Part shown: one piece after another, positions 11,486 through 34,276 of the stretch
Layout: every line of letters starts with the position of its first letter
How positions within the stretch are numbered: the first letter of the stretch is position 1
Assembly: GCA_019096065.1 (NCBI GenBank)
Contig: JAGUCH010000005.1
Coordinates: 6,510,001 to 6,574,000 of the forward strand
Reading direction: 5' to 3'
From: Paracyclopina nana
Lineage: Eukaryota > Arthropoda > Copepoda > Cyclopoida > Cyclopettidae
Length of the DNA stretch: 64,000 nucleotides
The notes under the pieces: generated by a model
Told to the model about the DNA's origin: nothing
What the model saw: the letters and a program-made list of their open reading frames with translations, nothing else
Databases searched by the model: none
Position numbers and translations under genes: made by a program

Positions 11486-12085
11486 TGAAAGGGGTTGGAT
11501 GACCGGGGCCTCAGAGGCCTAAATACGTATTCTGCACTCTGAGGCTGGATCGACTTCCCCTTGGGACGAGGGGCCTCTACCTCTCTAGTCTACCACTCTG
11601 GTCTCCTCGTGGACTGGCCGGTACGACAGTCCTGATCGGCCTCTTCCTCGGCCCCTTGTGACCTCAAGGCTCTATAGCGTCTATGCACCTCCAGTTCCGG
11701 AGACGAGACTCTTGAGAGGCGAGATATCCCACACCGTAGGATCACTACTGAATTGAGAGGCCTCTGGATGAACTGAGGCTTCAAGTCAGCGCTACGCGAA
11801 CAACTCAGGTTGAAAGGCTGAGTTCTCGATGGAGTTTGTTCACTAAAAACCACTGTTTTGTTATTCAATAGGCTGCTTTTATTGCTATCTTAGACCCTCC
11901 AGGTCTCAAGTCTGCAATCACTAAGTACAGCAAAACTTAATTGGACATCGCGATATGGCGTCCCACAAGCGACTCCTGGATGATCCGGCTCGTTCCTTGC
12001 TCGGCGCCTTCCCTCGCTCTCGTCCTCTATGAAGCTGCCTGCGCGCTGCCTGCGCACATCGGGCCCCACTATATGTCACGCTTCA
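11486..12085 (-). repeat. 3' LTR of element C
   Basis: 600 bp. On the minus strand it carries an AATAAA signal (at 11878-11883), as expected for an element transcribed leftward. A short frame inside it occurs in both copies and is not a gene. Confidence 0.93.
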
Positions 12086-12222
12086 ATCACCCTAACCAAT
12101 TTTGACCTCGGAGGCCAAGTCCAGTGTGACCTTGGATGACGAGGTCACTAACCTAAAAAATAAAAGAAAGGGTGACCACAGGACGTGGGGAATATTCCCC
12201 GATGAGAGGTTAGTTGCAGTAT
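12086..12222 (-). promoter_or_regulatory. Element C 3' end with polypurine-like motif
   Basis: On the minus strand GGTTAGGGTGAT directly abuts the 3' LTR, in the place of a polypurine tract. The same motif recurs at 19931-19942 and 19999-20009, each followed by AATTT-like sequence. Confidence 0.45.
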
Positions 12223-14121
12223 TTATTCTAATCTAGAAGTGTCGGGATATGTGGTTAAAGGAGTTAGATTGTTGGCTAATTTATCGCTGTATCGTTGTCG
12301 CGTTTGCAGTGATCGCGTCTCTTCGGTGTCGCGTGAGCCCCTTCGTCTCGTTGGTCGTGTAGGCCGCGTTTTACAGCATTGATGTCGTTTTCTCCAAATT
12401 ATGCAGGCCAGTATTAGTCCGATGGCTCCTGAGAGGCATGCCACGGTGGTATATACTTCCCATCGAGTGAAAATATTGAGCCAGGTCTTCTCCGGCAGTT
12501 TGTGTATGTATTGTGCGATGTCTGACTCCTTGGCCATTTCCGGCACGCCGATGGTTTGATCATTCAGCTCCAGTTGGCAGTTCGACTTGATTTGATAAGA
12601 TCCGGGCTCCAGGATGAGTTTTTGCGTGTCGTCCTCCGCACAAGTGCGGTTGAGGGTAGTTTCCTTGACCACGTTTGCTATTCCTGTGTATAAGTCGCAG
12701 TCCACGGGTGTGAGCGTGTTATCGCCTAGTTGCTGGAGCTCGCACACGTCGAAAGGGTCATCTATTGCCTTTCCTAACAGGCTGTGTGCGCATAGTGTCT
12801 CCTGGGAAGTAGGCTGATACTCGTTGGGCTCGCACACGATGGTCCCGTCTTCCTCCTCGTAGCAATCGGTGTAGTTGGGTAACTCGTTCGTCACGTAGGC
12901 CTTCTTCTTGTACTGTGTTAAGTATTTGGGCCTGAGAATCTTGCCGTCCAGGCTTCTGCTAATTATGAGGTAAGTTGTTTCCGGATCAGGATCTCGCGAG
13001 TCTTGACGCATTACCCCTCGGATTACGTAATCGTTGGCCTCGATAGTGTTGGCAATTCCCACGTATCTGATTTCATCGAGTTCCTCAGTTGCTTCGTTCG
13101 CGTATGGAAAGCGATATACATTCTTTAATCTTCTTATGGCTTTGCTGAACTGGGCTACTAGCTTGAGGCCTCCCATGAGGGTGTTAAGTTCCTCGCTATC
13201 GATGCCACCTACTTTTACTATTCTGGAGATTTTATCTATCGTTTGCACGGCTTGCCGAAGGGCGGCAGGTAGTGTTGCTTTTTTGGCTTTTCTAATCATG
13301 TTGGTCGCAAACTCGCGGGCTGACCCGGAGAGCGCTAGCTCCCCTAAGACTTTGATGGCATTTTCCATTTTTCTCAGGTAAGAGTCTACTGTGTTGGTAA
13401 ACTTGTTGAATGCACTCTTGTCGTTTATCAAGGCAGGATATTTCCGCTGGCAGACTGCGTCTTGCACTGCTGTGACGGGTGGAAACACGGTCATTTTCTT
13501 GATTTTGCTGGGAAATTGTGGCTCTGTTTCAACTGTGAGTGTAGGAAAGCCCTCGACATAGGTGCCACTGGGCTCTGCTCCTTCCATGTTTTCGAATACC
13601 AGTTTTTTATCGAGGGTCACAATGGATTTAAAGACTACGTCGATCTTCATATTAAACGTGTGTTTATTTCCCGAGCCTGACCGTAGGATTAATGCCTTAC
13701 GTAGAAATTCGGACATTTCTTCGTTTGACTCAGGTTCGAATCCCTCGAAGCCGGGGATCCTTTCGTTGCACAATTTGTCCAAATCTTTCACGTCTCCATT
13801 GGTCAGGGCTACTATTTTATTGTTGTAGTCCATCAGGAATCTGGGGACGCTTAAATCTTGCGGGTGGCGGCGTATTTTCACTAATGAGTCTTTCGTTTCG
13901 GCCCTGACCTTGGTTAACGCTTGTGCGTAAGGTTCAAGGTCCAGCACTGTCATCTCAGCTTCTTCTTGCACATGATATAGTCGACGGTACGGCCTAAGTG
14001 CGAAGTTGTTCATGCAAATCGAATTCTCCGGCACTTGCCCATATTCGTGAATAAATGCGGGTGCAGAGATGTCAGCAAGCGCTAATAATAAGTAAGCGGT
14101 TGCGTGAATGAACACTTTCAT
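12223..14121 (-). CDS. Element C Env-like type I membrane glycoprotein
   Basis: 632 codons, ATG start at 14121. Residues 1-20 are a clear signal peptide (MKVFIHATAYLLLALADISA). Residues about 555-576 are a membrane anchor (VACLSGAIGLILACIIW), followed by a basic Cys-containing tail of about 56 residues. The ectodomain has a helical middle and a cysteine-rich C-terminal half with N-glycosylation sites (NYTDC, NRTC) and a pattern of Cys followed by Gly-x-Tyr-x-Ile and Cys that recalls errantivirus/F-like envelopes. I see no obvious furin site. As the last gene before the 3' LTR it is placed like an env. The family assignment is inference. Confidence 0.6.
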   Translation of the reverse strand: MKVFIHATAYLLLALADISAPAFIHEYGQVPENSICMNNFALRPYRRLYHVQEEAEMTVLDLEPYAQALTKVRAETKDSLVKIRRHPQDLSVPRFLMDYNNKIVALTNGDVKDLDKLCNERIPGFEGFEPESNEEMSEFLRKALILRSGSGNKHTFNMKIDVVFKSIVTLDKKLVFENMEGAEPSGTYVEGFPTLTVETEPQFPSKIKKMTVFPPVTAVQDAVCQRKYPALINDKSAFNKFTNTVDSYLRKMENAIKVLGELALSGSAREFATNMIRKAKKATLPAALRQAVQTIDKISRIVKVGGIDSEELNTLMGGLKLVAQFSKAIRRLKNVYRFPYANEATEELDEIRYVGIANTIEANDYVIRGVMRQDSRDPDPETTYLIISRSLDGKILRPKYLTQYKKKAYVTNELPNYTDCYEEEDGTIVCEPNEYQPTSQETLCAHSLLGKAIDDPFDVCELQQLGDNTLTPVDCDLYTGIANVVKETTLNRTCAEDDTQKLILEPGSYQIKSNCQLELNDQTIGVPEMAKESDIAQYIHKLPEKTWLNIFTRWEVYTTVACLSGAIGLILACIIWRKRHQCCKTRPTRPTRRRGSRDTEETRSLQTRQRYSDKLANNLTPLTTYPDTSRLE

Positions 14122-14488
14122 GTTGCCTTTAACGTTGGTCTTGTTGAACTGAGTGCAATGTACAAGGGGCCTCTAATTTATACTGCAAAAGTGCATTTTT
14201 AGGCTGCATTTTTCTGGTCCCGGGCGTGCGAATTTGTGCTGTAAAAGTGCATCTTTGGGATGCATTTGTTGGTCGGGCGCGCGTCTGGGAAGAGTTCGCG
14301 CGTTTGTGTGGTATGCAAGTATTTTTATTTCATTCGTGCTGGCGCCAGTTCTATGGTTAGTAAGCATTGATTCAAAAATGTTATGGGAATTTTTGTTGAC
14401 AATTATGTACAAGGCGATTGTGCAATCCTGTTCTCGCAGAGGTCCGGGCCGTTTCAGTAAGTTTTAATGGTGGAGTGAGGTCATCGGG
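14122..14488 (-). other. Spacer in element C with a short direct repeat
   Basis: A unit of about 60 bases with AAAGTGCATxTTT and GGxTGCATTT occurs twice between 14186 and 14280. No ORF worth calling. It may hold a promoter for the Env-like gene. Confidence 0.4.
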
Positions 14489-15669
14489 TTATTTTTTCAC
14501 CATGCTGAGCAGCTCCCTTTTTAGGCGTTCTCTTTTATTGGGCTCGAGCTGTTCAAGCGCGGACGCGATTTCCCGCTCGATTTGAGTCGAGGGCTCGGTC
14601 CTCTCTGGTCTTCTGGAGGGCGCTGGGCGATGACTGGCTCTGGCAGCGGCTGCGTAACTTGTCGGTGGTGAAGTAATCCTTTCTCTATTCTCACGTTCCT
14701 TATATTCTCGCTGGCGTTGCTGTAGGGCTTTACGCTCCTGCAGGGTGAAACATCCTTGCAAGTAGCGCACCATGCGGGGATTCTCCTCTTCAAGCTGCGC
14801 GATGAAGGATTGGACCTCCGGGCAGGCTTGGTAGCGCATGTCTACTTTGAGTGGGAAGAAGCTTCCAAAACTAAGCAGGCCGTTGGCCAGATACTCCGGC
14901 GAGATCACCAGGATCTGGACTGCAATGGTGGACGGGTCGATGTATAAGGAGGGCTCTACGTAAGACTCGTCGAGTTTAATCAAAACGTCGATTTTTCGGT
15001 TGCGCACCGGTGCCTCTTCGAAGACACCGGGCAAGCCTTCGTTTCCGATGGTGGCCACCTTGTAGTGGGAGCCCAGTGTGGGGCTCAGTACTGGACACAT
15101 GTCTTGGATCTCAAGTGCGGTGCCCGTTGTGTTGTACAGTGGGTATGGGTTAGCCTCTTCTCCGCCCAGAAGAACTAGGGCTACTCGTGGAATCTCGTCG
15201 CTTTCAGCTGCTCCGGGGCGGATCTCGAAGGTCAACCTTGCTAAGTTACGGATGCGTATTGGTTGGCGAAAAGAGGATGGCTCATATCGCTCGCCATTTT
15301 TCATGGGCCAGGCTTCCAGTTGCATGCCCCACTGAACTTCTGGCCTGGGACCTGATTTAGAATGTGTCAATGAGCTTGACAAGTTAATAAAAGAGAGTTA
15401 CTTTTTAGTGTACCTTTTAATAGGTTCAATTGGCGAATAAATGGGCTTTGCACTGGTTGTCGGGCTTTTTCTATTGCTATTAGGCCCTCGATAAAGCGCT
15501 CAGGAGTGTGGTGCGCGGTTAGCTCCTCCAAGCTGTAGTAGTAGTCGAGATCGCGTGCCCATTTTTCCAGGGTGGGCCGCTCAGGTTCCGCGGGTGAATC
15601 GTCGTCGACCTCACGTTCATTATTGGGCTGAGCTGGAGTTTCCTGAGTGTCGCTTCGGTCAACTTCCAT
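14489..15669 (-). CDS. Element C unknown gene, probably two exons
   Basis: A frame from 15669 (ATG, acidic Pro/Glu-rich start MEVDRSDTQETPAQPNN) overlaps a longer frame ending at 14489. A short intron with GT-AG ends near 15350-15415 is plausible between them, similar in size to host introns. The C-terminal part has a beta-rich middle (RVALVLLGGEEANPYPLYN; KIDVLIKLDESYVEPSLYID) and ends in a basic, Arg/Ser/Pro-rich and coiled-coil region (REYKERENRERI). There is no membrane segment. It might be a structural or nucleic-acid-binding protein. I do not recognise the family. Confidence 0.5.
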
Positions 15670-16618: not shown

Positions 16619-17706
16619 ATGAGCTTCGTTCTTCCTTCTGCTAAAGAGGCGGGCAGTACTGAGGTAAGACATTACTTTGGTCGACTGCTTTATGAGCTCT
16701 CTTTGGGCCGGGAGGAATTTGAGGCAGACCGATATTATGCAGAGCAGTTTTGGACTGCCTTTCCCTGCACCAAATTATCGGCTGTGCTCCAATCACTGCG
16801 GTCGTTCAATTTGGGCGAGGTGGTCGACCTGTACTTTCCAGTAATGCAATTTTTTATTCTGATAGTAATTTTGTATGCTTATATTTATGCTTGATAGGAT
16901 TTGCCAGTCAATGAAATAGTGGATAAAGTGACTACGGCGGTGGCCCAATTCACCACAGCTGCTCCGCAATTTGCGTTTTCATCGGAGGCCGCACCTGGAT
17001 GCCCGGGTGCTCCCAAGGGCGAGCCGGCTGGACCCGAAAGTGTGGATTTGCTTGGCATTTTCGGCACCATTTCCTTTGGTGTGTGGATCATAGTAAGTTC
17101 TAGTTGACTTCCTTTTTGAGGGCTCAATCTTATGCTCGGCCTTTTTTGTTGCAGATTATTTTGGCGGCCTTGGCCTGGGGCTGCATCTGGGGGTATCGTC
17201 GCCTCGACAATTGGTGTTTGAACCGATACCACCGTCGTTTTCCCCCGAGTGAGCCGGTGACTTATGATGTCGAACTCCAGCAGGTGGTCGTTGGAGGGAG
17301 AGGAACAAGCACTGTTCAAGTTCTGTCGGCCGAGAAGCAGGAGGATTCGTCTGAAGATGCGAGTAGAAGTGGCCGTAAGAAGCGTGGATCAGCGGCTAAA
17401 ACGGGCCAAAAAGCTGTTGGTGGCACCGTGGCGGCGGCTGGTGGGCTACGCCCGAGTGTAGCGGGTCCTAGTGTGGAGGGGCTAATTGCGGGTATAGAGG
17501 CTCGCAATCGGGCAGCGCATCAGGCGCTGCATGATAAGGTCAACGGGGCACTTTGCACGGTGGCCCAGCTTGTGATCCTTGATGATTTGGGTAGACAAGT
17601 TGATGTTGCACTTGGAGCCATCAAGAGCGCGAGAGACAATGTTGGTGATGCCACCGAGGCTGAGGTTCTTGTAGAAATTCATGACGATGGCGCGGCCGCT
17701 TCGTAA
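16619..17706 (+). CDS. Element C antisense gene: single-pass membrane protein with two short introns
   Basis: The gene runs opposite to gag-pol. It has an ATG at 16619 and a stop at 17706. The frame is carried across two short introns (about 57 and 62 nt) with good GT-AG signals (GTAATG; GTAAGT with a TTTTTTGTTGCAG acceptor), both between codons. The product would be about 320 residues: a soluble N-terminal part, a Pro/Gly/Glu linker, one long hydrophobic segment (IFGTISFGVWII then ILAALAWGCIWGY), then a basic tail and an Ala/Gly-rich C-terminus. An AATAAA follows at 17766. Introns survive because gag-pol transcripts read this gene backwards. Its function is unknown. Confidence 0.6.
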
Positions 17707-20096
17707 TTATAGCCTCATTTTGCGTGTATAGTTATTTGTTCATGGATTTCTAATTTTACTTGTTTAATAAATCATGGCGAATGCATTTCACTTGGTGGTT
17801 GCTTGCTTTCGTTTGATATTGTAGCTCGCAATTTCGGCGTTTATGGGGCAAGTTTGGCCTTTTTCTGCGTCCTAATATATGGTCGCGTTGTCTAGCAGAG
17901 GTACCAGATGTCATAGTTGACGCGTTCTAAGCTCATTTTGGCTTTTGCGCATTGCGAACGGGGACTTTGGTTGACTTTGGTCTGGTAACTCTGTTTGGAC
18001 TTGTGATTTTTGCTTGAGGCTGCGAAAATGTCTTTTATTGTGCGTGAGGTAAAATTGTCCGAAAATTCGTGGCTTTACGGCTTGACTTTTCCGAATTTAC
18101 AGTTTTATAGTGGGACTGGGCGACCTCGACGTCAGTGGCGCCGGCCATGGCTGTCGCGGCTCCAGAAAGTGTGAGTGGAATTTGACAATCTTTGTTTACT
18201 TTTTTATTAGAAATAGCTCTGTTTTCTAGGGCTCTGATTAGGCCGCTTTTTGGGGCTGTGTCAGCCTCTTAATTACGGTAGCGGCGGGGCTGATATGCCG
18301 AATCTACCTCGGGTTGCCGTTCCTCGTGTGGGTTTTTCGGAGGCGGCCGCGGTTTTTATTCCCGGTGGTGAGTCAGCTTTACTTAGAGCCGCATGACTTG
18401 CCCCGGGGATCCCGGTTCGTCGTCCGAATCCTGGGACTCGAGGAGCAGGTCATCGACGACTCTATAGAAGTTTAGTAAGTAATCTGTTTTCGAAAGTATC
18501 GCATATATGAATTGTATTTTGTTGCAGGATGTGATTTTATAAAAATCGCTGTTATAATAATCCTCGTGGTGATCAGGCGGGCGGGGCTCGCGTGTGACCT
18601 TGTCATTGTCAGGTCCTGGGTGTGGCCGAGCGCAAGACGTGGGCATGGCCGAGCTCGAGCTGAGTAGCAAGACTGGAGGCGTGGGCAGCGTTGGTGGTGT
18701 AGTCCAAGTCCAGCCAACTTTCTCGTACTGGAATCTGAGGCGTGGCCGGTGTCATTTTCGGCGTGGGTGCTGACGTGGGCGTGGTCGTCGACGAACTTCT
18801 TCTCGCGAGGGCGGGTCATTGAATGGTCCCCATGGAAGTCAAGTAAGTATTTTTGTTATACCAAAGTGATTAGTACAAATTATATTTTTTCTTTTTCGTT
18901 ACAGAGTGTGGTTTTATAAAAATCGAAGTTATAGTTATCCTGCTATTCCATCTTCGTGGCGAGGGCGTGGTGGCCGACGTGGTGAGAGGGCGGGGCACGC
19001 TGACGATGGGCGGGACTGGGCGTGTCGCTTGCCTCTCTGCGTTTGGCTCGATAGTTGTGGCCTGTACTCGTCAATGTGCGGTGGGGACACCTCGGTCTTC
19101 GAGGGCGGCCCCGCCTCTCTGTGAAGGCGTGGTCCGGCATGTTCGAGGGGTTAGGCCAATGGGCGAGGCCGAGGCCGGTGGGAGGGGCCAATGCGGCTGG
19201 CTGGGTGGGCCCGGCTCGTGTAGCGAAATGGTTTTTGTTCCTCTTGGAGGCGCCGCCGCATCGTGGGCATGTTTCCTGATAGGCGTATACCTGGTTGGTC
19301 TCGGAACTGCTGCGAAATGATATTTGTTCCCCTTGGAAAACTGTGCTTGGCATTGGTTGCAAGCGCGGGCGCGTGAATCTGGTAAGTCACAGTTGCAGTG
19401 CGGTGCTAATTTAGAGGTTTATTTTTCTCTTTTTGTCAGGCCGGTGTCTTGAACAACGATAGTGTTTTTGTAAAAGGCCAACTGCTGAGCACGCTGGGCT
19501 GCGCCTTCGTATTTCTGAAGATTCCGAGGCTGATGTGGTAGACTCAACTGAGGCAACTGATGAGTGATTTCCTCTGGCTATGATTGATCCGTGATAGCTC
19601 CGTTGAGAGAGCGATCAATGCGGTCCTTCCGCTGGTTGCTTTTTAGGCTGAATGAGAGCTTTGCTGATTGAGCTTAACCTTTTATAGTTGTTGAACTCTC
19701 AGTTGTGTGATTCAGCCGGCTGTATCTGGTTTTATGTGACTGAAGTAAAGTTGTTTTTGGGTGTCATAATTAAGGTTTTGAGATTTGTTAAATAAAACAC
19801 CGTATTTGATGCAAAAAAGCGTATTGATCTATCCGTGTGTGTATGCCTTGCATTCCCCCCCCCTCGGAAAAGGTGGGTGGCAAAAAAAAAAAAAATTTTG
19901 TCGTATTTTTGGCGCACTGGTGTCACGGACATCACCCTAACCAGATTTGGTGTGATGTGTGTGACTATTTGAGGTTGTGAGAGGTTATGGTGACCTGGTC
20001 ACCCTAACCGAATTTGAGGCCATATCTTATGATCTTATGTGCTGTATCGTATGAAATATATATATATTATACATGTGTATTATTATTGGTGCTAGC
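17707..20096 (+). other. Element C G/T-rich region with possible further exons and a duplicated module
   Basis: Splice-like sites occur on the plus strand, e.g. a GTAAGTC...CTTTTTGTCAG pair near 19380-19440. A module occurs twice (18525-18580 and 18897-18950): a pyrimidine-rich acceptor followed by a sequence encoding CDFIKIAVIIIL in one and CGFIKIEVIVILL in the other, so hydrophobic segments may be exons of a second membrane protein. An AATAAA lies near 19793. I could not assemble a convincing gene. Two copies of the 3' polypurine-like motif lie at 19931 and 19999. Confidence 0.4.
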
Positions 20097-20729: not shown

Positions 20730-20988
20730 AGTGAACGCAAAGAGACTGCGAAGTTTCCTGTAGCAGCGAGAGAATGTGATGAGTAGACTGTCTGCTGTCT
20801 CGTCCAAAAGTGTTATGCATTATGAAATAAATTTAATTTAATAATTTCTTTACAATTGTGCAACAAAGTTTTATGAGAAAGGCTATATTAGTTTATTTGT
20901 CCTGACGATACATGTAAGGCTTTTATTTTTTATTCATATTTTTATCGGCAATTTCGTGTTCTTTGGCCTTTATTGACAGGCCTTTTTG

Positions 20989-21621: not shown

Positions 21622-21702
21622 TTTTCAAGGCTTAAGCGAGTGTACTGAGGAGCAGTGGTGCACGGGTGGCTAAGAAGGGACGGTACGCCTGGCGCCTGAA
21701 GG

Positions 21703-24700: not shown

Positions 24701-27700
24701 TGCGTGAGAAGCTCCTGCGTGGTTATAACTTTATTTTTTAATTCGGCAGGCAGTTCCAGTTTGCCTGCGTATAGGTCTTTTGTGAGTTGGCAGGAGTTAC
24801 TGTAAGGGGCGAAGAACATTGTTTCGTCGGTCGAGAATTTAAATTTATTTAGTAGTACATCTACCACGTCTAGTTGGTCCCTTGGGACTGTTCTCAGTCT
24901 CCACGAATATGGTAGTGCATATAGTCGTGATGCTAAACGCGTCATGAAAGAATTGTTTGTGGTAAATGAATGTGAGAGGATGGAAGCAATTGCCATGCAA
25001 TCTGTGATAATTATCACTCGCGTGCATGCATCAAGAATTTTCTTGTAATGTGTGACCGCTGCTAATACTCCCACGCATTCTTTTGTGAATGAGCAGTAAT
25101 TGAGTACAATGGCTAATGGGAATCTGGCCGAGTGGGCTCCGAGGCAGACCATTTTGCCTTGTGAGTCCACTTCCGCCAGCAGTGCTGAGTAGCTTATCGT
25201 CCCGGCGTCAACTATTACATATGTTTCTCCGTAAGAAGGTAAGGCTAGCGTGAGGCCTAATTTTATTTCTTCGACAATGGCTTTAAAGCATTTTTCTTGG
25301 AATGGAGAAAGGGTGAATTTTCCGGCTCGGCCATCGTCGGTGCCAAGGATATCTAATATCGGGGCTATGTATGCTCCCAGGCTAGGGCAGTATTGGCTGA
25401 GCCAATTTGTGAGGCCTACGAAGCGCTGCAGTTGCTTTCTAGTTTTTGGTGGCGGGTAATTGTCAAATGCGTCCCTGTATTTCGGTGGCATTTCCATTGT
25501 TACTCGTCCGTTTTGTGCTATCTTTATTATGTGGCCTAAGACTTCAACTTCTTTTACTGCTACTTTGCTTTTCTTTAATGAAAGTAGAGCATTTAAGTTG
25601 CGCATGCTTTCTAGCATGAGCTGGAAGTCTCGTAAATGGCATTCGTAGTCGTTATCATCTGCGGGAGCGGGCTCGTTTTTGATCCGTGCCAGGCACAAAT
25701 CGTCTACATAGCATGTGCATCTGTCGAGTATTTCGGGATGTAAGGACTGTTGCACAATTGTAGAGAAAACTACTGGTGATAGTGCTAGTCCCATCGGGAT
25801 GGTCTTGGGCCTGAAAAGGTGGCCTCTGTAAATACTTCGTGGGGAGGTTACACATAAGCAAGATAAATCAGCTGAGCTTTCTGCTAATCTACACTGGTCG
25901 AAGCCCGATGCGTAATCTACTGTGGTTAGCAGACAGGCCTTATTAAGCATTGGCAAAAGTGTTTGTATTGGTGGTATTACATGGCCTGTCTCTCGGTAGA
26001 CAATGTGGCTGTTTAGCTCCTGGAGGTCATATAGTAATCTGACTTTGCGCTGCTTCATAGGGGTGTCTTCATCGTTTTTTCTATTGCGGATGAAACAGGG
26101 GCTCGAGCCGAATTTATTAAGGCTTGCATCTACGGGCTCAATCAAGCCACTGGCCAGCATAAGCCCAATTTTTCGGTCACAGAGTGCGACGTCCTGTCTT
26201 CCCATATTATAGGCCTTGGCCACGACCTTTACGTTATCTTTTGTTTCGAACTCTATAGGAGGGCTGTTCCATAATTTGTACGCGCGCGGGTCATTTGTGA
26301 AGCAGTCGTTGTATGATTTCATGAGGGATCTAAATTTCTCCCTGTGGCTGTCAGGTATGTGGCTCAGATCGAACTTGTCGAACTCTTCATCAGGGGTGGC
26401 GAAGAAATAGCCGCCTAGCCCGTTGAATATCGTGTTCTCCGTTATGCTGGAGGGGTGATTTATTAGAAGCTGATATACTTCTTCAAAGAGCTGTCTCTCC
26501 GTCTCGGTGTGTTCGGCTATGTCTAGGGAGGCGCTCACTAAGTCCAGTTCTGAGGTCTTTCTGATCAGCGTCTGGCGGTTGTGGTACTCTTCCAGGTGAC
26601 CCTCGAAGATTGTCTTTACTCCGCAGACCGTGACTGGTTGATCATTTTCTCTCTTTAGGCATAGGTTGCAGCGGCAGCCTTCGGGTATGTAGACAAAGTG
26701 GTGTATATTATAGTCTGTACGTAGGTCTTGAAAAGTGCTTTCTTCGGGGTAGTATTTTAGCCCGGAAAGAAGGGTGAGAGCTGCTGCGCTGGCTAAAAAT
26801 AGAGGGTTATCATTTAAGTTTATTAGACATTCGGTCACGGCCCGTACGTAAATGTAGTCGCTTGTTTGCTTGAAGCGTAATTGTCCCAATATAGTGTATA
26901 TCAGGGCCGTGGTGTATTCGATGTCTTCCACGTCCTCTTGACGGATGTGTAGGATGATATGAATATCGTTGGCCAGTTTATATAGTCTCAGCCGTGAGCC
27001 CATTACTTTGAGGTCATAGAAATCCTCTCCTTTGTTCTTTTGGTATTGGAAATTGAAGCATTCGAGGCCGTCAGCGAAGATGGTTAAAACTGTGTATTCG
27101 TATCCAGCTAGGAAGGAGGTAATAGGGGCTGTGGCTAATGTTTGGTGTCGGTGGCAACAATGATTGTGCCTTAAGTGTAAAAGCTTAAAATTGTTGAATA
27201 GTCGATTGCATGTGCAAAGAATCCTCTTCATTTCTCCCGATAAGTGTTGCTCAACGGGAATTACGAATATGCATGGAATGTGGGTTATCTCTTTCTTCGC
27301 GAGCCATTTTTGCAGGTACTCATCCGTAAGTTGGTCGTACGAGTCTTGTTGGTCACTGGCCAAGAATAGCTGCATGTCCCGGTATACAATTTTAGGTCTA
27401 TTTTTACCTTTTAATGGGTTTGCTCTGTCAAAGGCATTAAACGTGGTGCGTGTAAGCCCATTAACGTCTGAAAATTGGGCAATTATTCCGTGTGGCTGGC
27501 AATAACACTGGGAAGGATATCTAGCTATGGTTTTTAGTCCCAGGTTGATGCGATTTATTTTATCCGTCTTTTTAAATCGGTGCGAATCGATTAGATTTAC
27601 ATGTCCAACTATCTGCTGTCCGTCCAGTCGTATTGGAAATTCGCATGTGTTTCTCAAGTTGATGGCCACCATTCCGTTGTGGTCAGCTTTTGTGATTGCG

Positions 27701-29436
27701 CCATCCGTTAACTCTGGCTTTAGAAATTCTTCCGCTTCGAAGAGCATAGGTTGGTTTTCAAATTTGGATATATGGCTGATAACCGATTCGTCATCTTCGT
27801 CGGCCTCCCAGTCTGTGTCCTCGTTGTACTCGAGGCCTGGCAGTATGGGGGCTTCGTCTTTGATGTATGCCAACGTGGTAATTTCCTCTCCTGGGCTTAA
27901 TGCCACAGAATGGGTTAATATTACTGGGTAAAACTCCTGCGATGATAATTCTAATGGTATTTTACCGTATTTTGACATTTTTCCAATTAATTCTATGTAT
28001 TGTGTGTTTCCTTTACAAGTCAGTCTTACATCGTTGTGTGCGAAGAGCGAATTGCCTATTAATAGCATCGTTTCTACGTCTGCTATTAGAAACATGACTT
28101 TTCTTAGTAGAATTTTGCCTCCTAGCAGAATTTGTAGTATTACTGCCTCGGAGGAGGGTATTGTGTCGCCGTTAAATACTTTTAGCTTGTGTCTGGTGGC
28201 TACTCTTGGTAAGCTGTAGCCTAATTTATTTTCGATGATTTCTACGAGCTTCGTCGAAATTATTTGGCTTTGCGAGCCCGTGTCGATCATCGCTTTGATG
28301 AAAACCGGGCCTGGTAGCTGTACGTGAATAAATGGGCGATCTGCTAGGTCATTTAACTCTAGTGAATGACAACTTTGAATGTCCTCGTTGCCCCAGACGT
28401 CTACTTCATCTAGTGATTTCTTTACGTGTGTGCTAAAGTTTACTGCCTGCACTGAATTAATTTTGGACTGGATTACGGTCATTATATCATCATCTTCAGC
28501 TGCAACTGTATTATTGGTTGTTGCTTCAACTGTCTCGGCTACGACTGTGGCCGAGACTGGGGCCTCAGCAGGGGTGGAAATCTCCAGTTTTGTTTCGGTA
28601 ACTGGTGCTTTGTTGAGCTCAGCAGTGCTGCTTTCGCAGGGCACGGTCTGATTGGTTATTTTCAGACATACTACTTCCTTTTCCTTGCTTTCCTTATTTA
28701 TGCCTAACAACCTTGCTAAATTGGTTAAGTTATTCTTAGCGTATTCGGCTACGGTTTTGCCAGTGACTGCGATGATGATAGCCGTGGAAGCTGCCTTAGT
28801 AATTAAAGGATTTCTCACGGCTTGGGTGGCCAAGGAGGCTCCTAGTATGGCCAGTGAGGAGTAAATTGCATAGTCCCATACATTGCCTTGCTCTAGTAAG
28901 GTCTTCTCCTCGCTGGAGTCGGCTAATGGGCTATTTTCGATTATTGTTACGGGCTTGTCATTTTTAGGTTTCCCCTGGTTACTGACAGAATCCCAAGTTT
29001 CTATGATATCGGCAGGCTCGTCGTCGAAGTAGTGACAAGTACTTTCGATCTCAGTCTGGGTTTTCGTGGACACTTTGGCTACTTCTGCTACTCCTGTTTC
29101 CTTAAGTTTCTTTGCTTCAGATTGAGCTCTGTAGAATGAAAAGCTGGCCTTTCCGCATTCTCGGGAAAAGTGTCCCTGCATGAAAGGGGGTAGCTCGTAG
29201 TTATAGCTCTTAGTTTCGTCTGCGTCAGCGTTTTTTGTTTTGTCAGCCTCCTTTTGAGGCTCTGCGGGTGAGGCATTTGGTGTAATTAAATCTTTATTGT
29301 TGGTGCTCATTTTAATGCTTCTTTTTTGATTTTCCAGCAAAGTAGATTTTCCAAGGCTCTGTGGTAGCCTCCGCAAAAGCTGCAGCGGCCTACATTTCGA
29401 AAGTGTGTGCGCGGCGTATTCGGATATTCGCGGCAC
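21703..29436 (-). CDS. pol: Element C Pol polyprotein (protease, RT, RNase H, integrase, long C-terminal extension)
   Basis: A single open frame of 2577 codons. Near residue 385 is an aspartic protease motif (AMIDTGSQSQI). RT motifs follow, with VRLLYDLQELN, TTVDYASGFDQ, IPMGLALSP and the catalytic YVDDL near 1244. RNase H begins near 1410 (VIVDAGTISYS; IIITDCMAI). Integrase has an H-H-C-C zinc region (HNHLGANKMN; CIHCSLNKQ), and D,D,E at SIDLAFF (about 1820), IADNGGN (about 1880) and NSYAESN (about 1917). About 600 further residues follow, mostly charged and low-complexity, with no motif I recognise. Domain order is Ty3/gypsy-like but the RT is divergent. The frame overlaps the upstream one, as expected for a frameshifted Gag-Pol. 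It looks whole. Confidence 0.88.
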   Translation of the reverse strand: MPRISEYAAHTLSKCRPLQLLRRLPQSLGKSTLLENQKRSIKMSTNNKDLITPNASPAEPQKEADKTKNADADETKSYNYELPPFMQGHFSRECGKASFSFYRAQSEAKKLKETGVAEVAKVSTKTQTEIESTCHYFDDEPADIIETWDSVSNQGKPKNDKPVTIIENSPLADSSEEKTLLEQGNVWDYAIYSSLAILGASLATQAVRNPLITKAASTAIIIAVTGKTVAEYAKNNLTNLARLLGINKESKEKEVVCLKITNQTVPCESSTAELNKAPVTETKLEISTPAEAPVSATVVAETVEATTNNTVAAEDDDIMTVIQSKINSVQAVNFSTHVKKSLDEVDVWGNEDIQSCHSLELNDLADRPFIHVQLPGPVFIKAMIDTGSQSQIISTKLVEIIENKLGYSLPRVATRHKLKVFNGDTIPSSEAVILQILLGGKILLRKVMFLIADVETMLLIGNSLFAHNDVRLTCKGNTQYIELIGKMSKYGKIPLELSSQEFYPVILTHSVALSPGEEITTLAYIKDEAPILPGLEYNEDTDWEADEDDESVISHISKFENQPMLFEAEEFLKPELTDGAITKADHNGMVAINLRNTCEFPIRLDGQQIVGHVNLIDSHRFKKTDKINRINLGLKTIARYPSQCYCQPHGIIAQFSDVNGLTRTTFNAFDRANPLKGKNRPKIVYRDMQLFLASDQQDSYDQLTDEYLQKWLAKKEITHIPCIFVIPVEQHLSGEMKRILCTCNRLFNNFKLLHLRHNHCCHRHQTLATAPITSFLAGYEYTVLTIFADGLECFNFQYQKNKGEDFYDLKVMGSRLRLYKLANDIHIILHIRQEDVEDIEYTTALIYTILGQLRFKQTSDYIYVRAVTECLINLNDNPLFLASAAALTLLSGLKYYPEESTFQDLRTDYNIHHFVYIPEGCRCNLCLKRENDQPVTVCGVKTIFEGHLEEYHNRQTLIRKTSELDLVSASLDIAEHTETERQLFEEVYQLLINHPSSITENTIFNGLGGYFFATPDEEFDKFDLSHIPDSHREKFRSLMKSYNDCFTNDPRAYKLWNSPPIEFETKDNVKVVAKAYNMGRQDVALCDRKIGLMLASGLIEPVDASLNKFGSSPCFIRNRKNDEDTPMKQRKVRLLYDLQELNSHIVYRETGHVIPPIQTLLPMLNKACLLTTVDYASGFDQCRLAESSADLSCLCVTSPRSIYRGHLFRPKTIPMGLALSPVVFSTIVQQSLHPEILDRCTCYVDDLCLARIKNEPAPADDNDYECHLRDFQLMLESMRNLNALLSLKKSKVAVKEVEVLGHIIKIAQNGRVTMEMPPKYRDAFDNYPPPKTRKQLQRFVGLTNWLSQYCPSLGAYIAPILDILGTDDGRAGKFTLSPFQEKCFKAIVEEIKLGLTLALPSYGETYVIVDAGTISYSALLAEVDSQGKMVCLGAHSARFPLAIVLNYCSFTKECVGVLAAVTHYKKILDACTRVIIITDCMAIASILSHSFTTNNSFMTRLASRLYALPYSWRLRTVPRDQLDVVDVLLNKFKFSTDETMFFAPYSNSCQLTKDLYAGKLELPAELKNKVITTQELLTHIYNTLLNNGLLSKQLLDKRLASLRDKWTDLIGPCENEPWDEDSLVIVKEDPHEQPIKHTHEEEINPYSAISYLENNPVVEILSVKRAPEPRLPGITRNLLIKLQRNCEETQTIVKLLLISDKKHIPPELSSRFRVLDASILVARKNLKRPFSQASNTKIYMSTHNTAYLLACTHLLHNHLGANKMNLLFTQSMYGTYSARIARIISSACIHCSLNKQSNSRFIGKSRFPLPKAPFDMVSIDLAFFDETLITGRNATVAFIMVDMFSKLLIVKPLTDAKFKQISTAMEEIFSTYGTPKHIIADNGGNLTRNLAMQELINKYSVETVGLLFTTPHKHTNSYAESNIRLLRKALLQNLQCYNKKQSEVLKYTVFALNNRPLTFYKYVDEKGHTIIPTPFSLFFDRKPVFDIGHDIYDILSETEKLVQKKQWAEIIQEYDEKEEERIKVMSKTESLSFKPEIGSLVFVRRLPENKHRRRFMAELHEIVDITRTQATVKPYLRKGKERQVGLDQIKIYRFHELYSMLPEKVTDLLLRTYTPEQISKNESSREMRQFLTNPLVKPPHKKRTDEISERELVEQLISETTSDTTTSYDRQLQTALDAGSILQRKAADIFKPEDIARVRQKAQDVVLEDWKQFKIRHKDSPEQIKAQLGLDKNMPSFRQLALDRVKNQASQQDPKTMEYSTPDKPAEPVNPDYSSISKAFPKDREQNQSFDTDGSFSPDHPILNENNLQAELSRINFPNRNMDLEIESLADSFAKASIEPQDPLFSGLLQPTDLTKAFDNTKEFIEEFEKQTSFVSPESKNKLLEGFRRLSRAFTSPFKSPKTRLEDAGTEMSPLSPSTNDPSHDPDVYEDVGEYGATARPPTPDEEDELVSPPSIAEEVMRRLRGRKPINYREARAYTKKVHYVPLEPREGPLPLAERRKLREIFNSDNGDSPYRVQLKHHVLRDWKGKHVVAPRFDYAIFLKAMGLDSESDELQKTLMKHRVTRDDMYHLYKGTL

Positions 29437-29633
29437 ACTTTAAATAAGTGGCCTGCTTGATTGCAGAGTAAGGATGCTCCCGTCTTTTCAGGGTCGGTGA
29501 ACTGATTCAACTCATTCGAGCTTGACGCGGGTTGAGCTCCTGCTCCAGCGTTTACGGCTTGTAATGCGGCAATTTGAATTTCGTCTTTAATCATTTTCTG
29601 TATTACTGAGCGTAAATCGGCTTGTGATCCCAA
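29307..29633 (-). CDS. Element C nucleocapsid-like overlapping frame
   Basis: A 108-codon frame overlapping the end of gag and the start of pol. It has Cys/His clusters (LLCNQAGHLFKVC; CSFCGGYHRALENLLC) resembling zinc knuckles. Retroelements often reach such a frame by programmed frameshifting from gag. The exact mechanism is not visible here. Confidence 0.5.
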   Translation of the reverse strand: MGSQADLRSVIQKMIKDEIQIAALQAVNAGAGAQPASSSNELNQFTDPEKTGASLLCNQAGHLFKVCREYPNTPRTHFRNVGRCSFCGGYHRALENLLCWKIKKEALK

Positions 29634-31684
29634 GCGTCAGATCCTTCGATTTCGATGGCATGAACGCGTGGCCTTGGATTTTCAGCTCCTGTGATGAGAG
29701 GCAATCTATGATCCTTCTCTTTTTCTTTCTGGGCACGTGGAGGACTGTTCCCAATCATCTTTTGTACTAGTCGAATTAGTGCATGGTAAGCCTCTGAGCT
29801 GTTGGGTTTAATGCCCGAGCTGGCCAAATGTTTTTCAAATTGATCGTCAATTAAGTTGGCATCGTTAGGGTAGAAATTGTCCAACCAGGATTTACCGTCG
29901 AGGAGTGTGGCTGCGACCGCTGATCCTGGGCCTAGCGATCTTCCTTTATATTGGTGAGTGCGGAGTGTTAAGAAACGCTCCATCACTTGACCGAAGCCGA
30001 GCTGATTGTTGTTGTACAAGTTGTTGATTTTTCGTGTGATTTCATGATAAGATGGCTTCGTGTGAGACGATGATTGCAGATATGACCAAACGGTGGGGAA
30101 GGCTTGCTCTCCTTCCATCATGAGTGTGTGTATTGTTGCTACCGTGGTTTGAGAGCACATGAGGCATAGGGCTTCGATTGTGGCTTTCCAAGACCATTGC
30201 TTGAGAGATGCTTGGTCGGCTAGGGCTCGGAAAAAGGTCATCGTCGAAGAGTCCAGATTATCAGGGGAATTCGCATCGAATTTCGTTGTGTACAGAGACT
30301 GTCGGATCAATTTAATAGTCTTAGCATCCGGATGAGCAACTGCTCCGCACGGGGGAGGTTGCACGTACAGCTCGTTATTTTCGAGTGAGTAAGTCACGCT
30401 GCTAATTCCTGACGGGGCTGCAAGCATTTGACTGTTTTTAACAAAGGCTTCTTGAAAAGCTGCTTTCTGCAGGTTAGTAAGGTTGGGCTCATTCGTGAGT
30501 AATAATAGTGTGGCTGAAATTTCTCTCTGCTTGTCGCGCTCGTTTGTCGATGGGTCGACAAGCTGCGAGGCCGCTTCTAAAGCGGTTTCACGATTGTTGA
30601 CGCTGGAGATATCCATTCTGCTGATTCTGTTAAATATGGGTTCCTCGAAGGATTCGTGCTGAACCCGGCTTTCTGCCAGGGCTATCCCATCTCGAGTAAT
30701 GGCCTCAATCCTGGCTTTAATTTCCGTTGCTCTGTGCGCGTTTTTGTCACTCCCTACGTATTTTCTGTAGATGGCTCGCAGTGCGTTTAATGCTGTAGTC
30801 GCTATCTGATCGTTATATAAATCGCGTAAGTGGTTGTAAAATATTCGCTGCTCCTCAGGGGTCGTATTCTCCCCTGCTAGAACTTTAGTCTGAACCTCTG
30901 ATAATGTATCTTCATCTACCGAGGTGTGGAAGCGGCTGGCATCAAAGCTGGGCATTTGAGGTTGGCTCGTGTTATTTTGGGTGCTCGAGAGGTGGTCCCG
31001 GGCTCCAAGCGTTGTCGTGTTCCCGAAAGTCACTGGTTTTTTCATGCCTCCTAATTGAGCTTCTCGTTGCACATTAGTATTTTTCTGAGGCATCTGTTGC
31101 TGGTCGAGTATGATGGAAACAATCTCGATTCCTCTAGCTAGAGGCAGTATGTTTTCGCGAGGGTTTGGCAGTGCGGCTATGATGGCCGCTCGAATGTTAT
31201 CCACCACAGTGAGCTTCTCTTTCACGGCCATGAGCTCGGCTAGGGCCTCAAGGCCAAGAAAATATGTGATTATTTGAACAACAATCGGGTCAATTCCAGA
31301 GTTTTTTATATGTAGGATATAGCGTATGACTTGCATAAGTTGCATCAAGGCAGATCCCTCCCTCAGGCCAGACATGATCGTCACAATGTGCTCGGAGACC
31401 GAGGCGGACTTTTCGCGTGGCCAAATGTCGTTTTCCTCACTTCTGGCTGTGTTCCAGGCTTCAATTAGTTGTAGCTGGTTCAATTGTGTATCCGGTAGCT
31501 CCTCGGGGAAATGCGCGCGTTTGGTCCACAGTGGCATGACATTTTCGATGGGCCCTTTTAGAATCGTGAGTGCATTAATTTCCCGGTCGACCTGGCCTTC
31601 ATCTTGGTCAAGGTGACCGGCAATTCTCGCGATATAAAGTGCGCGGGTCATAGTGTCGTGAGTGTCGGTTTCATTGGAAGCCAT
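29603..31684 (-). CDS. gag: Element C Gag
   Basis: 693 codons, ATG at 31684, the first ORF after a 2-kb leader. The protein is largely helical. The segment from about residue 430 to 660 has the look of a capsid domain (LIRQSLYTTKFDANSPDN; MTFFRALADQASLKQWSW; GKSWLDNFYPNDANLIDDQ), and the N-terminal half is a long helical region of unknown fold. It has no zinc knuckle of its own; those lie in the overlapping next frame. Position and size argue for Gag; sequence similarity to known Gags is weak by eye. Confidence 0.7.
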   Translation of the reverse strand: MASNETDTHDTMTRALYIARIAGHLDQDEGQVDREINALTILKGPIENVMPLWTKRAHFPEELPDTQLNQLQLIEAWNTARSEENDIWPREKSASVSEHIVTIMSGLREGSALMQLMQVIRYILHIKNSGIDPIVVQIITYFLGLEALAELMAVKEKLTVVDNIRAAIIAALPNPRENILPLARGIEIVSIILDQQQMPQKNTNVQREAQLGGMKKPVTFGNTTTLGARDHLSSTQNNTSQPQMPSFDASRFHTSVDEDTLSEVQTKVLAGENTTPEEQRIFYNHLRDLYNDQIATTALNALRAIYRKYVGSDKNAHRATEIKARIEAITRDGIALAESRVQHESFEEPIFNRISRMDISSVNNRETALEAASQLVDPSTNERDKQREISATLLLLTNEPNLTNLQKAAFQEAFVKNSQMLAAPSGISSVTYSLENNELYVQPPPCGAVAHPDAKTIKLIRQSLYTTKFDANSPDNLDSSTMTFFRALADQASLKQWSWKATIEALCLMCSQTTVATIHTLMMEGEQAFPTVWSYLQSSSHTKPSYHEITRKINNLYNNNQLGFGQVMERFLTLRTHQYKGRSLGPGSAVAATLLDGKSWLDNFYPNDANLIDDQFEKHLASSGIKPNSSEAYHALIRLVQKMIGNSPPRAQKEKEKDHRLPLITGAENPRPRVHAIEIEGSDAWDHKPIYAQ

Positions 31685-33676
31685 GGTGAATTATGCAAAA
31701 TGATTTTATTTCAAGTTATGTCTATTGAAGTCTCGAGTGTGCAGAAAGTGGTTTGGCAGGTGCAGTTTTAGGCCGCTCCTTTAAAACCTTCAAGCAAGAT
31801 TTATGATGATGGCGTGAAGCCGAGTGCTTGGCCAAATTGTGGTGTGAGTCAGCTAGATTGGACGCCCTTCCAGACTTTTTATGCTGGGCCGTCTCGCTGA
31901 ATCGTGATGTGTGCAAAAGATTAGAGTGGAACCGGTTTTCGCTTGTTGTGTGTAAGAAGATTTTGGGCTTCACAATTTATGGCTGGATTGAAGTAACAAA
32001 GGGTTCTTTATGTGGTTAAACTTGGCTCTGCAACTTTTGAAAGTAGGTTGCAGCTGAATCAAAGTTTAATTCAATAGAGTACTTTTTATTTTCCTTGTAA
32101 AAGTGTGGAGGCTGAAATTATCTCTACGAGTTGAGTAGCAAAACGTTCTCGTTTTCTGCGAGCGAAGTGCGCGTAAATTCGAGTAGAGTGCAGTTGATTC
32201 GTTTATTATAGCAAGATGATGGGTTCTTTTGAAAAAGGGTCCCAAATAGAGCAGGAATGCTTGGAGTAGATGGCCAGATTTGGCTGTGTGGAAACCTGTT
32301 TTTCTCTTCAGAGCTGAAATGGCTCGGGGCTACACAGCTTGCGGCCCACGCTCGAGAGTAGCGAATAAGGTTGCAAAATTGTGTGCGTGAGTTGGCAAGA
32401 TAATAGGCCCTTCTAGTTTATTTATGGGCTTGTCTTGCTTGGATTTTGAGTTGAGGGCAACTAGTTTTAGCTGGTTGAAAAAGAGTTTATATTGTAGCTC
32501 AACTTGGCTCTGCAACTTTTTGAAAGTGGGTTGCTAGGCAAAGCTATGCTATTGTCTGTTTTTTACTCTGATTTAATCTGCGAAAAAGGTCTCTTTTTCA
32601 GCGCGCAAAATGTGCGAAATTGGAGATACTTTTGCGTAATAATTTGAGCAGAGAAGTCGTTTTATTTAATTGTCAATCACTTGTCCGTTTTTATTTGAAT
32701 TCGTGATTAACTGTAGTATATGCAAGGTGTGAGAGGTCTCAAGTCTGTACTTGAGAGTAGGCAAATGGTTTTTTACAGCAAAAACCAATAAAAGCAACGT
32801 GGGCACTTCTCAAGGCTGGGCTTGAGAGAAGAGGTTTTTTATAGCAAAAACCGGGAAAAGCTACGTTAGCAGTGAGCAGATCTGGTCTCAAGTGCGAGCT
32901 TGAGAAGGGGGAAAAGTTTTTCGTAAAACTTTCCCTAATTTTTTCGTGGAGCTAGAAATAAGCAAAGCGTATCGTTAGCTGTGGGCAGAGCAAAATATAC
33001 TGTATTTTAATTCTTAACTTTTGGGATTTTGCGGCGGTCTACTGCAACTTTCGTCTGACTGTGCGGCAATTCCCGTGAACTCGTCCTGAGTTCGGCTTTC
33101 TTTTTTACAGAACGTCTTGTCCCCTCCTTCTTCTCAGGATCACTCCAGTGTCCGGCTCGCAGGTGCGGAGTCGTAAATTCCGCCCAAAATCGAGCTTTCT
33201 TCTGATTCCTCCGATCGGGGCGTCCAAAGTCTAGTCCAATCCTTCCGACCTCGACTTTCTTCGCAGAGGGTGTGGCTCGAGTCGCGTAAGCTAGGAATCC
33301 TGGATCCCCCCGCAGTCAAACGCACCACTTGACTAATGTATTTTCAGAGCCCGGGCTACAAAGGTTTATATCTCTCGAAGACTCTGAAGGTACCCGGCAC
33401 TCCTCTCACGCCGAGACAAGAAATGGGGTCTTATACACACTTGTGGGCCCTTCTCCTCGCGCACGTGGTCCTTTTTGCCTTCACCTAAGGCCGACTTTAC
33501 ACTATTCGCGATCTTCTGTCAGGATGAGACAGACGAGATCGGCCAACCCGCGAGTTAGGCACTTGCACCGCCCGTGCCCCCGCAAAGCCAGTTGGTCTGA
33601 CAAAGAAGACTCCCTAGAGGTCTACTGACAGGCCCATCCTTCCGCCTGTCAGGTCACTCCCGGGTCGCGGCACCAT
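31685..33676 (-). promoter_or_regulatory. Element C 2-kb leader: primer-binding site and triple double-hairpin array
   Basis: Next to the LTR the minus strand reads TGGTGCCGCGACCCGGGA (33675 down), a tRNA-3'-end complement; I could not name the tRNA. A CTCAAG-6 nt-CTTGAG hairpin occurs at 32738-32755, 32809-32826 and 32887-32904, with the same stem and different loops. The first two are followed by GGTTTTT...AAAAACC hairpins and the third by GGAAAAGTTTT...AAAACTTTCC. Farther on, a unit containing TTGGCTCTGCAACTTTT is repeated at 32024 and 32503. No ORF is supported. These could serve packaging, dimerisation or translation. Confidence 0.6.
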
Positions 33677-34276
33677 TGAAAGGGGTTGGATGACCGGGGC
33701 CTCAGAGGCCTAAATACGTATTCTGCACTCTGAGGCTGGATCGACTTCCCCTTGGGACGAGGGGCCTCTACCTCTCTAGTCTACCACTCTGGTCTCCTCG
33801 TGGACTGGCCGGTACGACAGTCCTGATCGGCCTCTTCCTCGGCCCCTTGTGACCTCAAGGCTCTATAGCGTCTATGCACCTCCAGTTCCGGAGACGAGAC
33901 TCTTGAGAGGCGAGATATCCCACACCGTAGGATCACTACTGAATTGAGAGGCCTCTGGATGAACTGAGGCTTCAAGTCAGCGCTACGCGAACAACTCAGG
34001 TTGAAAGGCTGAGTTCTCGATGGAGTTTGTTCACTAAAAACCACTGTTTTGTTATTCAATAGGCTGCTTTTATTGCTATCTTAGACCCTCCAGGTCTCAA
34101 GTCTGCAATCACTAAGTACAGCAAAACTTAATTGGACATCGCGATATGGCGTCCCACAAGCGACTCCTGGATGATCCGGCTCGTTCCTTGCTCGGCGCCT
34201 TCCCTCGCTCTCGTCCTCTATGAAGCTGCCTGCGCGCTGCCTGCGCACATCGGGCCCCACTATATGTCACGCTTCA
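33677..34276 (-). repeat. 5' LTR of element C
   Basis: The partner of 11486-12085, with no difference seen by eye. It is followed by TGAG, the right copy of the target duplication. Confidence 0.93.

What the first reader, a model, noticed from the sequence alone, without database searches (positions are those of the whole stretch)
11486..34276. A 22.8-kb LTR retroelement carrying about 9.6 kb of extra genes on both strands
LTRs of 600 bp that appear identical by eye and a TGAG duplication prove one recent insertion event. Yet only about 10 kb is gag-pol. The rest holds DUF5662-like twins, a plus-strand spliced gene, an unknown gene and an Env-like gene. Known env-bearing retroelements add one or a few ORFs; I know of none with this set. 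It may be a new lineage of giant, virus-like retroelement or a retroelement that captured a block of foreign DNA.
Basis: partly seen in the sequence, partly recalled or inferred. Interest (0 to 1): 0.88.

Follow-up and report, generated by a model that had tools for sequence, protein, structure and literature searches.

The report
Giant animal retroelement with antisense genes
The 22.8-kb element is real and one of many giant virus-like retroelements in an animal genome; besides gag, pol and an envelope-like gene it carries a spliced membrane-protein gene on the opposite strand that is kept across distant relatives, which is unusual and can be tested.

Summary
Confirmed. Window 11486-34276 is an LTR element on the minus strand: 600-bp identical LTRs, 4-bp duplication, tRNA-Phe primer site. 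It is not a one-off capture: six further insertions, each with its own duplication and 0-3 LTR differences per 600 bp, carry the same block, and their blocks differ by 0.4-6%. At least 60 distant relatives (pol segment 48-54% identical) exist; 56 of 60 have the unknown gene downstream. Three measured members are about 19-25 kb. The "plus-strand spliced gene" is a predicted spliced transmembrane-protein gene antisense to gag-pol. In 75 of 84 loci with the unknown gene a homologous antisense exon lies upstream on the opposite strand, in 0 on the same strand; selection is purifying, and an intron inside the membrane helix fits in five families. One copy lacks exactly the 62-nt intron of the unknown gene, so that intron was once spliced out of element RNA. 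Among elements, DUF5662 twins occur in this family only; their relatives lie in viral contigs and a few bacteria. Env, unknown gene and antisense gene have no Pfam or PDB match. Antisense ORFs (Retand/Grande; HIV-1 ASP) and giant elements (Burro, Ogre) are known; I found no report of this combination. Functions, promoters and infectivity are inferred.

The parts
33677..34276 (-). 5' LTR, 600 bp
   Evidence: identical to the other LTR
11486..12085 (-). 3' LTR, 600 bp
11482..11485 (.). target-site duplication TGAG, left copy
34277..34280 (.). target-site duplication TGAG, right copy
33658..33675 (-). primer binding site, 18 nt complementary to the 3' end (with CCA) of a host tRNA-Phe(GAA)
29603..31684 (-). 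gag ORF, 693 aa (by position; no significant Pfam match)
21703..29439 (-). pol open frame, 2578 codons: protease DTG, RT with YVDD, RNase H; integrase by motif only
20989..21621 (-). DUF5662 ORF 1, 210 aa
   Evidence: Pfam PF18907; open in 7 of 7 copies, dN/dS 0.23
20097..20729 (-). DUF5662 ORF 2, 210 aa from this ATG (the frame is longer)
   Evidence: Pfam PF18907; open in 7 of 7 copies, dN/dS 0.19
18242..18475 (+). second antisense exon, 77 codons with a predicted transmembrane helix; upstream exons unresolved
   Evidence: open and gap-free in 7 of 7 copies, variable sites 11/7/30 by codon position; dN/dS 0.19 with 8 upstream codons included; upstream model not supported
16619..16840 (+). 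antisense transmembrane gene, exon 1 (start codon inferred)
16898..17092 (+). antisense transmembrane gene, exon 2
17155..17706 (+). antisense transmembrane gene, exon 3 (end of the membrane helix and tail); 322 aa in all
15414..15669 (-). unknown gene, exon 1 (start codon inferred)
15352..15413 (-). 62-nt GT-AG intron of the unknown gene; exactly absent from the copy at C3:2.71 Mb (L003)
14489..15351 (-). unknown gene, exon 2; 372 aa in all
12223..14121 (-). Env-like gene, 632 aa: hydrophobic N terminus, 14 Cys, transmembrane segment near 556-577, basic tail
12087..12097 (-). GGTTAGGGTGA next to the 3' LTR, where a polypurine tract is expected; it recurs at 19932-19942 and 19999-20009

Best explanation
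It is a recently inserted copy of a giant Ty3/Gypsy-like, envelope-bearing LTR retroelement lineage of (probably) an arthropod. Life cycle by homology: RNA from the 5' LTR, reverse transcription primed by tRNA-Phe, integration with a 4-bp duplication. The 9.6 kb after pol are a standing part of the element. Sense genes there are the DUF5662 twins, a spliced unknown protein (I propose a regulator, for example of RNA handling) and Env. Antisense to them, divergent from the unknown gene, lies a spliced gene for a single-pass membrane protein, and beyond it a second antisense membrane-protein exon. Most likely a promoter between the unknown gene and the antisense gene drives the latter, and the antisense protein acts at the cell or particle membrane beside Env. 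Shown: LTRs, duplications, primer site, copies, gene order, open frames, intron sites kept, purifying selection, past splicing of one intron. Inferred: promoters, antisense transcription, protein locations, functions, particles, infectivity.
For: Seven insertions with different 4-bp duplications and 0-3 of 600 LTR differences. Blocks differ by 0.4-6% between copies, so the block was passed on over element generations. DUF5662 twice in each of 7 copies, open. Env open in 5 of 7, pol frame of 2578 codons in 5 of 7. 56 of 60 remote pol segments have the unknown gene downstream, against 0.7 on average (at most 4) in 200 random placements; 55 of 60 remote Env rows have it directly upstream. Antisense gene: 75 of 84 unknown-gene loci, opposite strand every time; no indel or stop in 966 coding nt in 7 of 7 copies while its introns vary in length with GT and AG kept; variable sites 23/21/46 by codon position; exons 1+2 dN/dS 0.09. 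In 6 of 6 pairs among four C-type exons the antisense frame alone has no stop in either sequence and has the lowest dN/dS (0.12-0.23 in five pairs) or a saturated dS (one pair). Models with a phase-0 intron splitting the membrane helix fit in B-E as in the window. Exact loss of the 62-nt intron in one copy. RT scores best against Ty3 among PDB sequences: 79.9 bits.
Against: No RNA or protein data: antisense transcription is not shown. Exon 3 of the window family's antisense gene has dN/dS 0.57, hardly lower than two other frames (0.59, 0.60), though only its frame lacks stops. The models were picked by a filter that asks for a hydrophobic stretch, so the helix is partly built in. Family D was tied to the antisense gene by the model in one member only; the sequence searches missed the seven loci with its 450-aa unknown-gene frame. 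Env has no match in Pfam, PDB or the large protein collection and no R-x-K/R-R site, so 'envelope' rests on layout, cysteines and the membrane segment. The modelled antisense protein has no evident signal peptide. The unknown gene is one unbroken frame in B-E, so its intron seems special to this family.
Confidence: 0.8

Rival explanations
1. One retroelement copy captured a block of foreign DNA between pol and its 3' LTR.
For: A domain otherwise seen here in viral contigs and bacteria (DUF5662) and genes on both strands look foreign.
Against: Seven independent insertions carry the whole block and distant relatives carry the unknown gene, Env and antisense gene without DUF5662. Base composition on the element strand (A above T, C above G) is alike in gag, pol, DUF5662, the antisense zone and Env; the LTR (G above C) and antisense exon 3 (A near T) differ.
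Confidence: 0.03
2. The antisense zone does not code: it is a conserved regulatory DNA or RNA region in which open frames arose by chance.
For: Exon 3 in the window family is weakly constrained; long stretches between pol and the antisense gene hold no long sense frame in B and C.
Against: Codon-position bias, gap-free exons beside introns of varying length, lowest dN/dS and no stops in that frame only, and a like intron position across families.
Confidence: 0.07
3. The element is a plain retrotransposon; Env and the antisense protein work inside the host cell and there is no infectious stage.
For: All copies seen are in one genome, the only animal genome searched; no relative among IMG/VR contigs by Env, unknown gene or pol.
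Against: Env is among the most constrained genes (dN/dS 0.09) and free of internal stops in 56 of 60 remote rows, which fits a standing membrane function; that does not need infection.
Confidence: 0.35

Closest known systems
Ty3/Gypsy elements (Metaviridae)
   Same: protease-RT-RNase H-integrase order, TG..CA LTR ends, 4-bp duplication, tRNA primer, RT best against Ty3
   Different: far longer than usual (usual size recalled); the pol segment is only 21-24% identical to its 7 hits in the large protein collection, which may hold few animal proteins
Burro giant Gypsy-like elements of planarians (PMC6431247, passages read)
   Same: giant Gypsy-like elements of animals with an env-like region and accessory domains
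   Different: Burro has a polyprotein of about 4,900 aa with env in frame between gag and pol; here Env is a separate gene at the 3' end and genes lie on both strands
Retand/Grande-type plant elements with antisense ORFs between pol and 3' LTR (PMC11963269, PMC7264820, passages read)
   Same: a conserved antisense ORF between pol and 3' LTR; in Grande a promoter upstream of it
   Different: Retand antisense ORFs mostly carry TRP28; here the antisense product is a predicted spliced membrane protein without Pfam match, beside an Env
HIV-1 ASP and HTLV HBZ/APH (PMC10186651, passages read)
   Same: antisense retroviral genes; ASP is described as membrane-associated
   Different: those are driven from the 3' LTR and ASP lies over env; here the gene starts 2.5 kb from Env, has two introns and at exon 3 overlaps no sense frame free of stops
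Bdelloid rotifer LTR elements with varied ORF3 (PMC5408684, passages read)
   Same: animal LTR elements with acquired enzyme or env-like ORFs after pol
   Different: different ORF types; the paper does not hold the term DUF5662
Cer1 CERV (PMC10309623, passages read)
   Same: a non-Env protein from a spliced mRNA, its C-terminal half encoded where env would lie
   Different: no sequence relation tested; CERV exons 1-3 share the gag frame; an export function here is only a guess

Membership tests
Ty3/Gypsy (Metaviridae-like) | RT nearest to Ty3-type RTs | tested here: met
   phmmer against PDB sequences: Ty3 79.9 bits, then 4ol8 60 bits (recalled to be Ty3 RT too), then 42.2 bits and less; no tree was made
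Ty3/Gypsy (Metaviridae-like) | order protease-RT-RNase H-integrase | tested here: met
   Pfam for RT and RNase H, protease under the cut-off; protease and integrase by motifs
Ty3/Gypsy (Metaviridae-like) | TG..CA LTRs, tRNA primer site, 4-6 bp duplication | tested here: met
Errantivirus-like (env from baculovirus F) | Env related to a known fusion-protein family | tested here: inconclusive
   no match in Pfam or PDB by sequence; the single-sequence fold failed (pLDDT 33)
Retand-type antisense ORF | TRP28 (PF04195) domain in the antisense ORF | tested here: not met
   no TRP28 in the 322-aa model nor in exon frames of B, C and D (E not scanned)
DUF5662 (PF18907) | score over the curated cut-off | tested here: met
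   40.5 and 35.4 bits against 27
HD-domain hydrolases | HD fold and metal-binding residues | tested here: inconclusive
Burro | env in frame between gag and pol in one giant ORF | tested here: not met
   separate Env ORF at the 3' end

The most novel reading that the evidence does not exclude
A so far unnamed clade of 19-25 kb endogenous retrovirus-like elements of arthropods has, on an internal divergent promoter, a spliced antisense gene for a second surface membrane protein that was kept while RT diverged to 50% identity; one family added a pair of HD-like proteins of viral or bacterial type. That would be an animal retroelement with a two-strand coding plan and two surface proteins.
Probability: 0.45. 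Interest if true: 0.78.

Novelty: new variant of a known kind. Interest (0 to 1): 0.66.

Why it matters
It shows that LTR retroelements of animals can keep a large, two-strand gene set over long times. A spliced antisense membrane-protein gene under purifying selection in dozens of copies bears on the debated question of whether antisense retroviral genes are real and useful. The element is abundant in one 92-Mb genome, so RNA, particle and small-RNA data could settle it quickly.

Tried and rejected
Protein-collection searches: DUF5662 ORF 1 and Env gave nothing at E<=0.001; the pol segment gave 7 hits at 21-24% identity. IMG/VR scans with Env, unknown gene and pol found 44, 59 and 8 pattern stretches and no relative. 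tblastn of DUF5662 ORF 1 against phage records: no match. Scans for DUF5662 with another first sequence found 119 relatives among 134 pattern stretches of IMG/VR and 4 of 75 in genome contigs; with ORF 1 as first sequence 1 of 153 and 0 of 103.

Env structure: AF2 on the single sequence gave pLDDT 33 and was not used. I did not add genome relatives to that job because the tool's text allows only other sources. DUF5662 fold: no firm match; a family not listed there is not excluded.

A full model of the second antisense gene (a short first exon and a middle exon) was rejected: it shifts frame in 6 of 7 copies; only the 77-codon exon is claimed.

Host: nematode cuticle collagen domain and SL1 RNA gave no match, but no control genome rang either, so these answers prove nothing. 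80 Chitin_bind_4 matches (no control rang) point to an arthropod; the link of that domain to arthropods is recalled. The idea of the annelid Dimorphilus was dropped for lack of support. Troyka (passages) does not fit: 3-bp duplications, CG ends, no envelope.

My own errors: one search cut the unknown gene one base off (its dN/dS of 0.77 there is void; 0.05, where the intron-less copy L003 is misframed by the alignment). In one search the row with L039 is misframed and void. In one search the rows with L037 and L025 are misframed and void, and the script stopped at its last pair; one search repeats the C-type rows with right slices. Searches stopped with an error and one search printed nothing, for file-handling reasons. 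Six short fragments were dropped before the count.

Full report
OBSERVATION. The two LTRs (11486-12085, 33677-34276) are identical over exactly 600 bp and flanked by TGAG. The element reads on the minus strand. Next to the 5' LTR lies an 18-nt primer site complementary to the 3' end of a host tRNA-Phe gene plus CCA (of 46 places with the 15-mer I sampled five away from the element, and ARAGORN called a tRNA in one). Pfam finds RT and RNase H over their cut-offs and a protease under its cut-off in the 2578-codon pol frame; the RT scores best against Ty3; integrase is recognised by motifs only. Gag has no significant Pfam match. The element sits inside a plus-strand Bel/Pao-like element (that label is recalled).

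COPIES. The 600-bp LTR has 31 matches in the 92-Mb, 10-contig host genome. They include seven pairs about 22 kb apart. The six other pairs each have their own 4-bp duplication (GGTG, TCTA, CTTA, CCTT, GTAA, CTTT) and 1, 1, 1, 3, 0 and 1 differences between their LTRs; a single LTR flanked by AAAT lies on C9. All seven carry both DUF5662 ORFs open, the unknown gene, the antisense exon 3 open and Env (open in 5 of 7, one with a stop, one broken by a frameshift). The pol frame has its full 2578 codons in 5 of 7. Between copies the blocks differ by 0.4-6% although each insertion is young, so the block has been passed down through element generations.

WIDER LINEAGE. A pol segment finds 60 further loci at 48-54% identity, Env 60 further rows at 28-32% (56 of 60 without an internal stop in the match), and the unknown gene 75 further rows beyond nine close ones. 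The tool calls such counts lower bounds. 56 of 60 remote pol segments have the unknown gene downstream on the same strand within 22 kb and 45 have Env; 200 random placements gave 0.7 on average and at most 4 with the unknown gene. 55 of 60 remote Env rows have the unknown gene just upstream. One member each of three families was measured: B 23,421 bp with duplication GTAC; C 24,716 bp with duplication CCAA; D about 18.9 kb between the matched LTR parts, ends not settled (lengths of B and D by arithmetic from printed coordinates).

ANTISENSE GENE. On the plus strand 16619-17706 a model of three exons, with introns of 57 and 62 nt, gives 322 aa with one strong membrane helix followed by a basic stretch. 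In 7 of 7 copies the 966 coding nt have no indel and no stop, and GT and AG are kept, while intron lengths vary. Variable sites by codon position are 23/21/46. dN/dS is 0.32 overall, 0.09 for exons 1+2 and 0.57 for exon 3. For exon 3 alone two other frames give 0.59-0.60 but hold 3-7 stops in each copy, so exon 3 in this family is weak evidence by itself. In one member each of B, C, D and E the same place holds an antisense two-exon model in which a phase-0 intron of 60-87 nt splits the membrane helix (models were filtered for a hydrophobic stretch; C and E are close, about 57% identical in this exon). Family-wide there are 8 + 56 + 16 antisense hits (six fragments of 101 dropped), and 75 of 84 unknown-gene loci have one upstream on the opposite strand, 0 on the same strand. 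Of the nine without, seven have the 450-aa unknown-gene frame of family D and two lie in the rearranged C7:5.67 Mb region. In 6 of 6 pairs among four C-type exons the antisense frame alone is free of stops and has the lowest dN/dS (0.12-0.23, five pairs) or a saturated dS (one pair); L020 against L035 (B) gives 0.14. A second antisense exon (18242-18475, 77 codons, membrane helix) is open and gap-free in 7 of 7 copies with variable sites 11/7/30; dN/dS 0.19 with eight upstream codons included. Its upstream exons are unresolved. Neither the 322-aa model nor exon frames of B, C and D nor the second exon have a significant Pfam match, and the 322-aa model has none in PDB.

UNKNOWN GENE AND ENV. 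The unknown gene has a 62-nt intron in this family; in the members of B-E that I read it is one unbroken frame. The copy at C3:2.71 Mb lacks exactly these 62 nt, GT to AG, with no other gap in the stretch aligned. That copy differs from the window's by 0.4% and the other five, which keep the intron, by about 4%, so the intron was lost there: its RNA had been spliced before reverse transcription. dN/dS is 0.05, variable sites 8/3/40. Members of B-E have lysine/arginine-rich stretches near the C terminus that look like nuclear signals by eye. Env aligns over its whole length with families B, C and D at 28-29% identity, 11 of its 14 cysteines being invariant. It has one membrane segment near the C terminus, three N-glycosylation motifs (one of them after the membrane segment) and no R-x-K/R-R site; dN/dS 0.09. 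Neither has a significant match in Pfam or PDB.

HOW IT MOST LIKELY WORKS. The retroelement cycle is inferred from homology. The unknown gene and the antisense gene start head to head: about 950 bp apart in the window and, by the frames as seen, a few hundred bases in C, D and E. One internal divergent promoter is the simplest way to make the antisense mRNA. Grande in maize has such an antisense promoter (PMC7264820, passages). I propose that the antisense protein sits in the cell or particle membrane as HIV-1 ASP is reported to (PMC10186651, passages), that the unknown protein regulates RNA as CERV does in Cer1 (PMC10309623, passages), and that DUF5662 is an accessory enzyme. None of this was tested.

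NOVELTY. DUF5662 occurs in 0 papers of the library. Searches for giant, env-bearing or antisense-bearing elements listed no title that describes this gene set; I read passages of eight papers and none as a whole. Many subscription papers are not held. The parts have precedents; the combination, and a conserved spliced antisense membrane-protein gene in animal LTR elements, I did not find.

Noticed in passing
12087-12097, 19932-19942, 19999-20009 (minus strand): The 11-mer GGTTAGGGTGA beside the 3' LTR recurs twice 14.3 kb into the element and nowhere else in the window; 13 of the 14 internal copies are kept in seven elements. It could be a second plus-strand start site.
   Followed up: partly
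7390-11488 and 34224-36023: A plus-strand Bel/Pao-like element is interrupted by the insertion (rve, DUF5641, weak DUF1759).
   Followed up: no
29307-29636 (minus): A short frame with zinc-knuckle-like cysteines overlaps the ends of gag and pol in a third frame, so gag-pol may need frameshifts or splicing.
   Followed up: no
L031 4341-4967 (C2:11.42 Mb): A lone intron-less DUF5662 gene, the best Pfam match of the genome, lies beside ankyrin-like and RRM-like frames (labels by eye); no RT hit is near. A host gene or an old relic.
   Followed up: partly
L020 7844-8290, L022 9399-9863, L025 6386-6856: B, C and E share a stretch (GRRDSLGHRH... on one strand, IIGGRRCHVYGDALENLFGL on the other) between pol and the antisense gene; coding strand unclear.
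   Followed up: no
47228-49747 (minus) and 47137-47208: Two amiloride-sensitive sodium channel genes and a tRNA-Trp lie downstream.
   Followed up: no
20-730 (plus) and 4737-5303 (minus): Fragments of other retroelements: an integrase core (over its cut-off) and a weak gag match.
   Followed up: no
G000 C7:5.63-5.70 Mb and C6:6.43-6.54 Mb: Several related elements and fragments cluster or are nested here.
   Followed up: no
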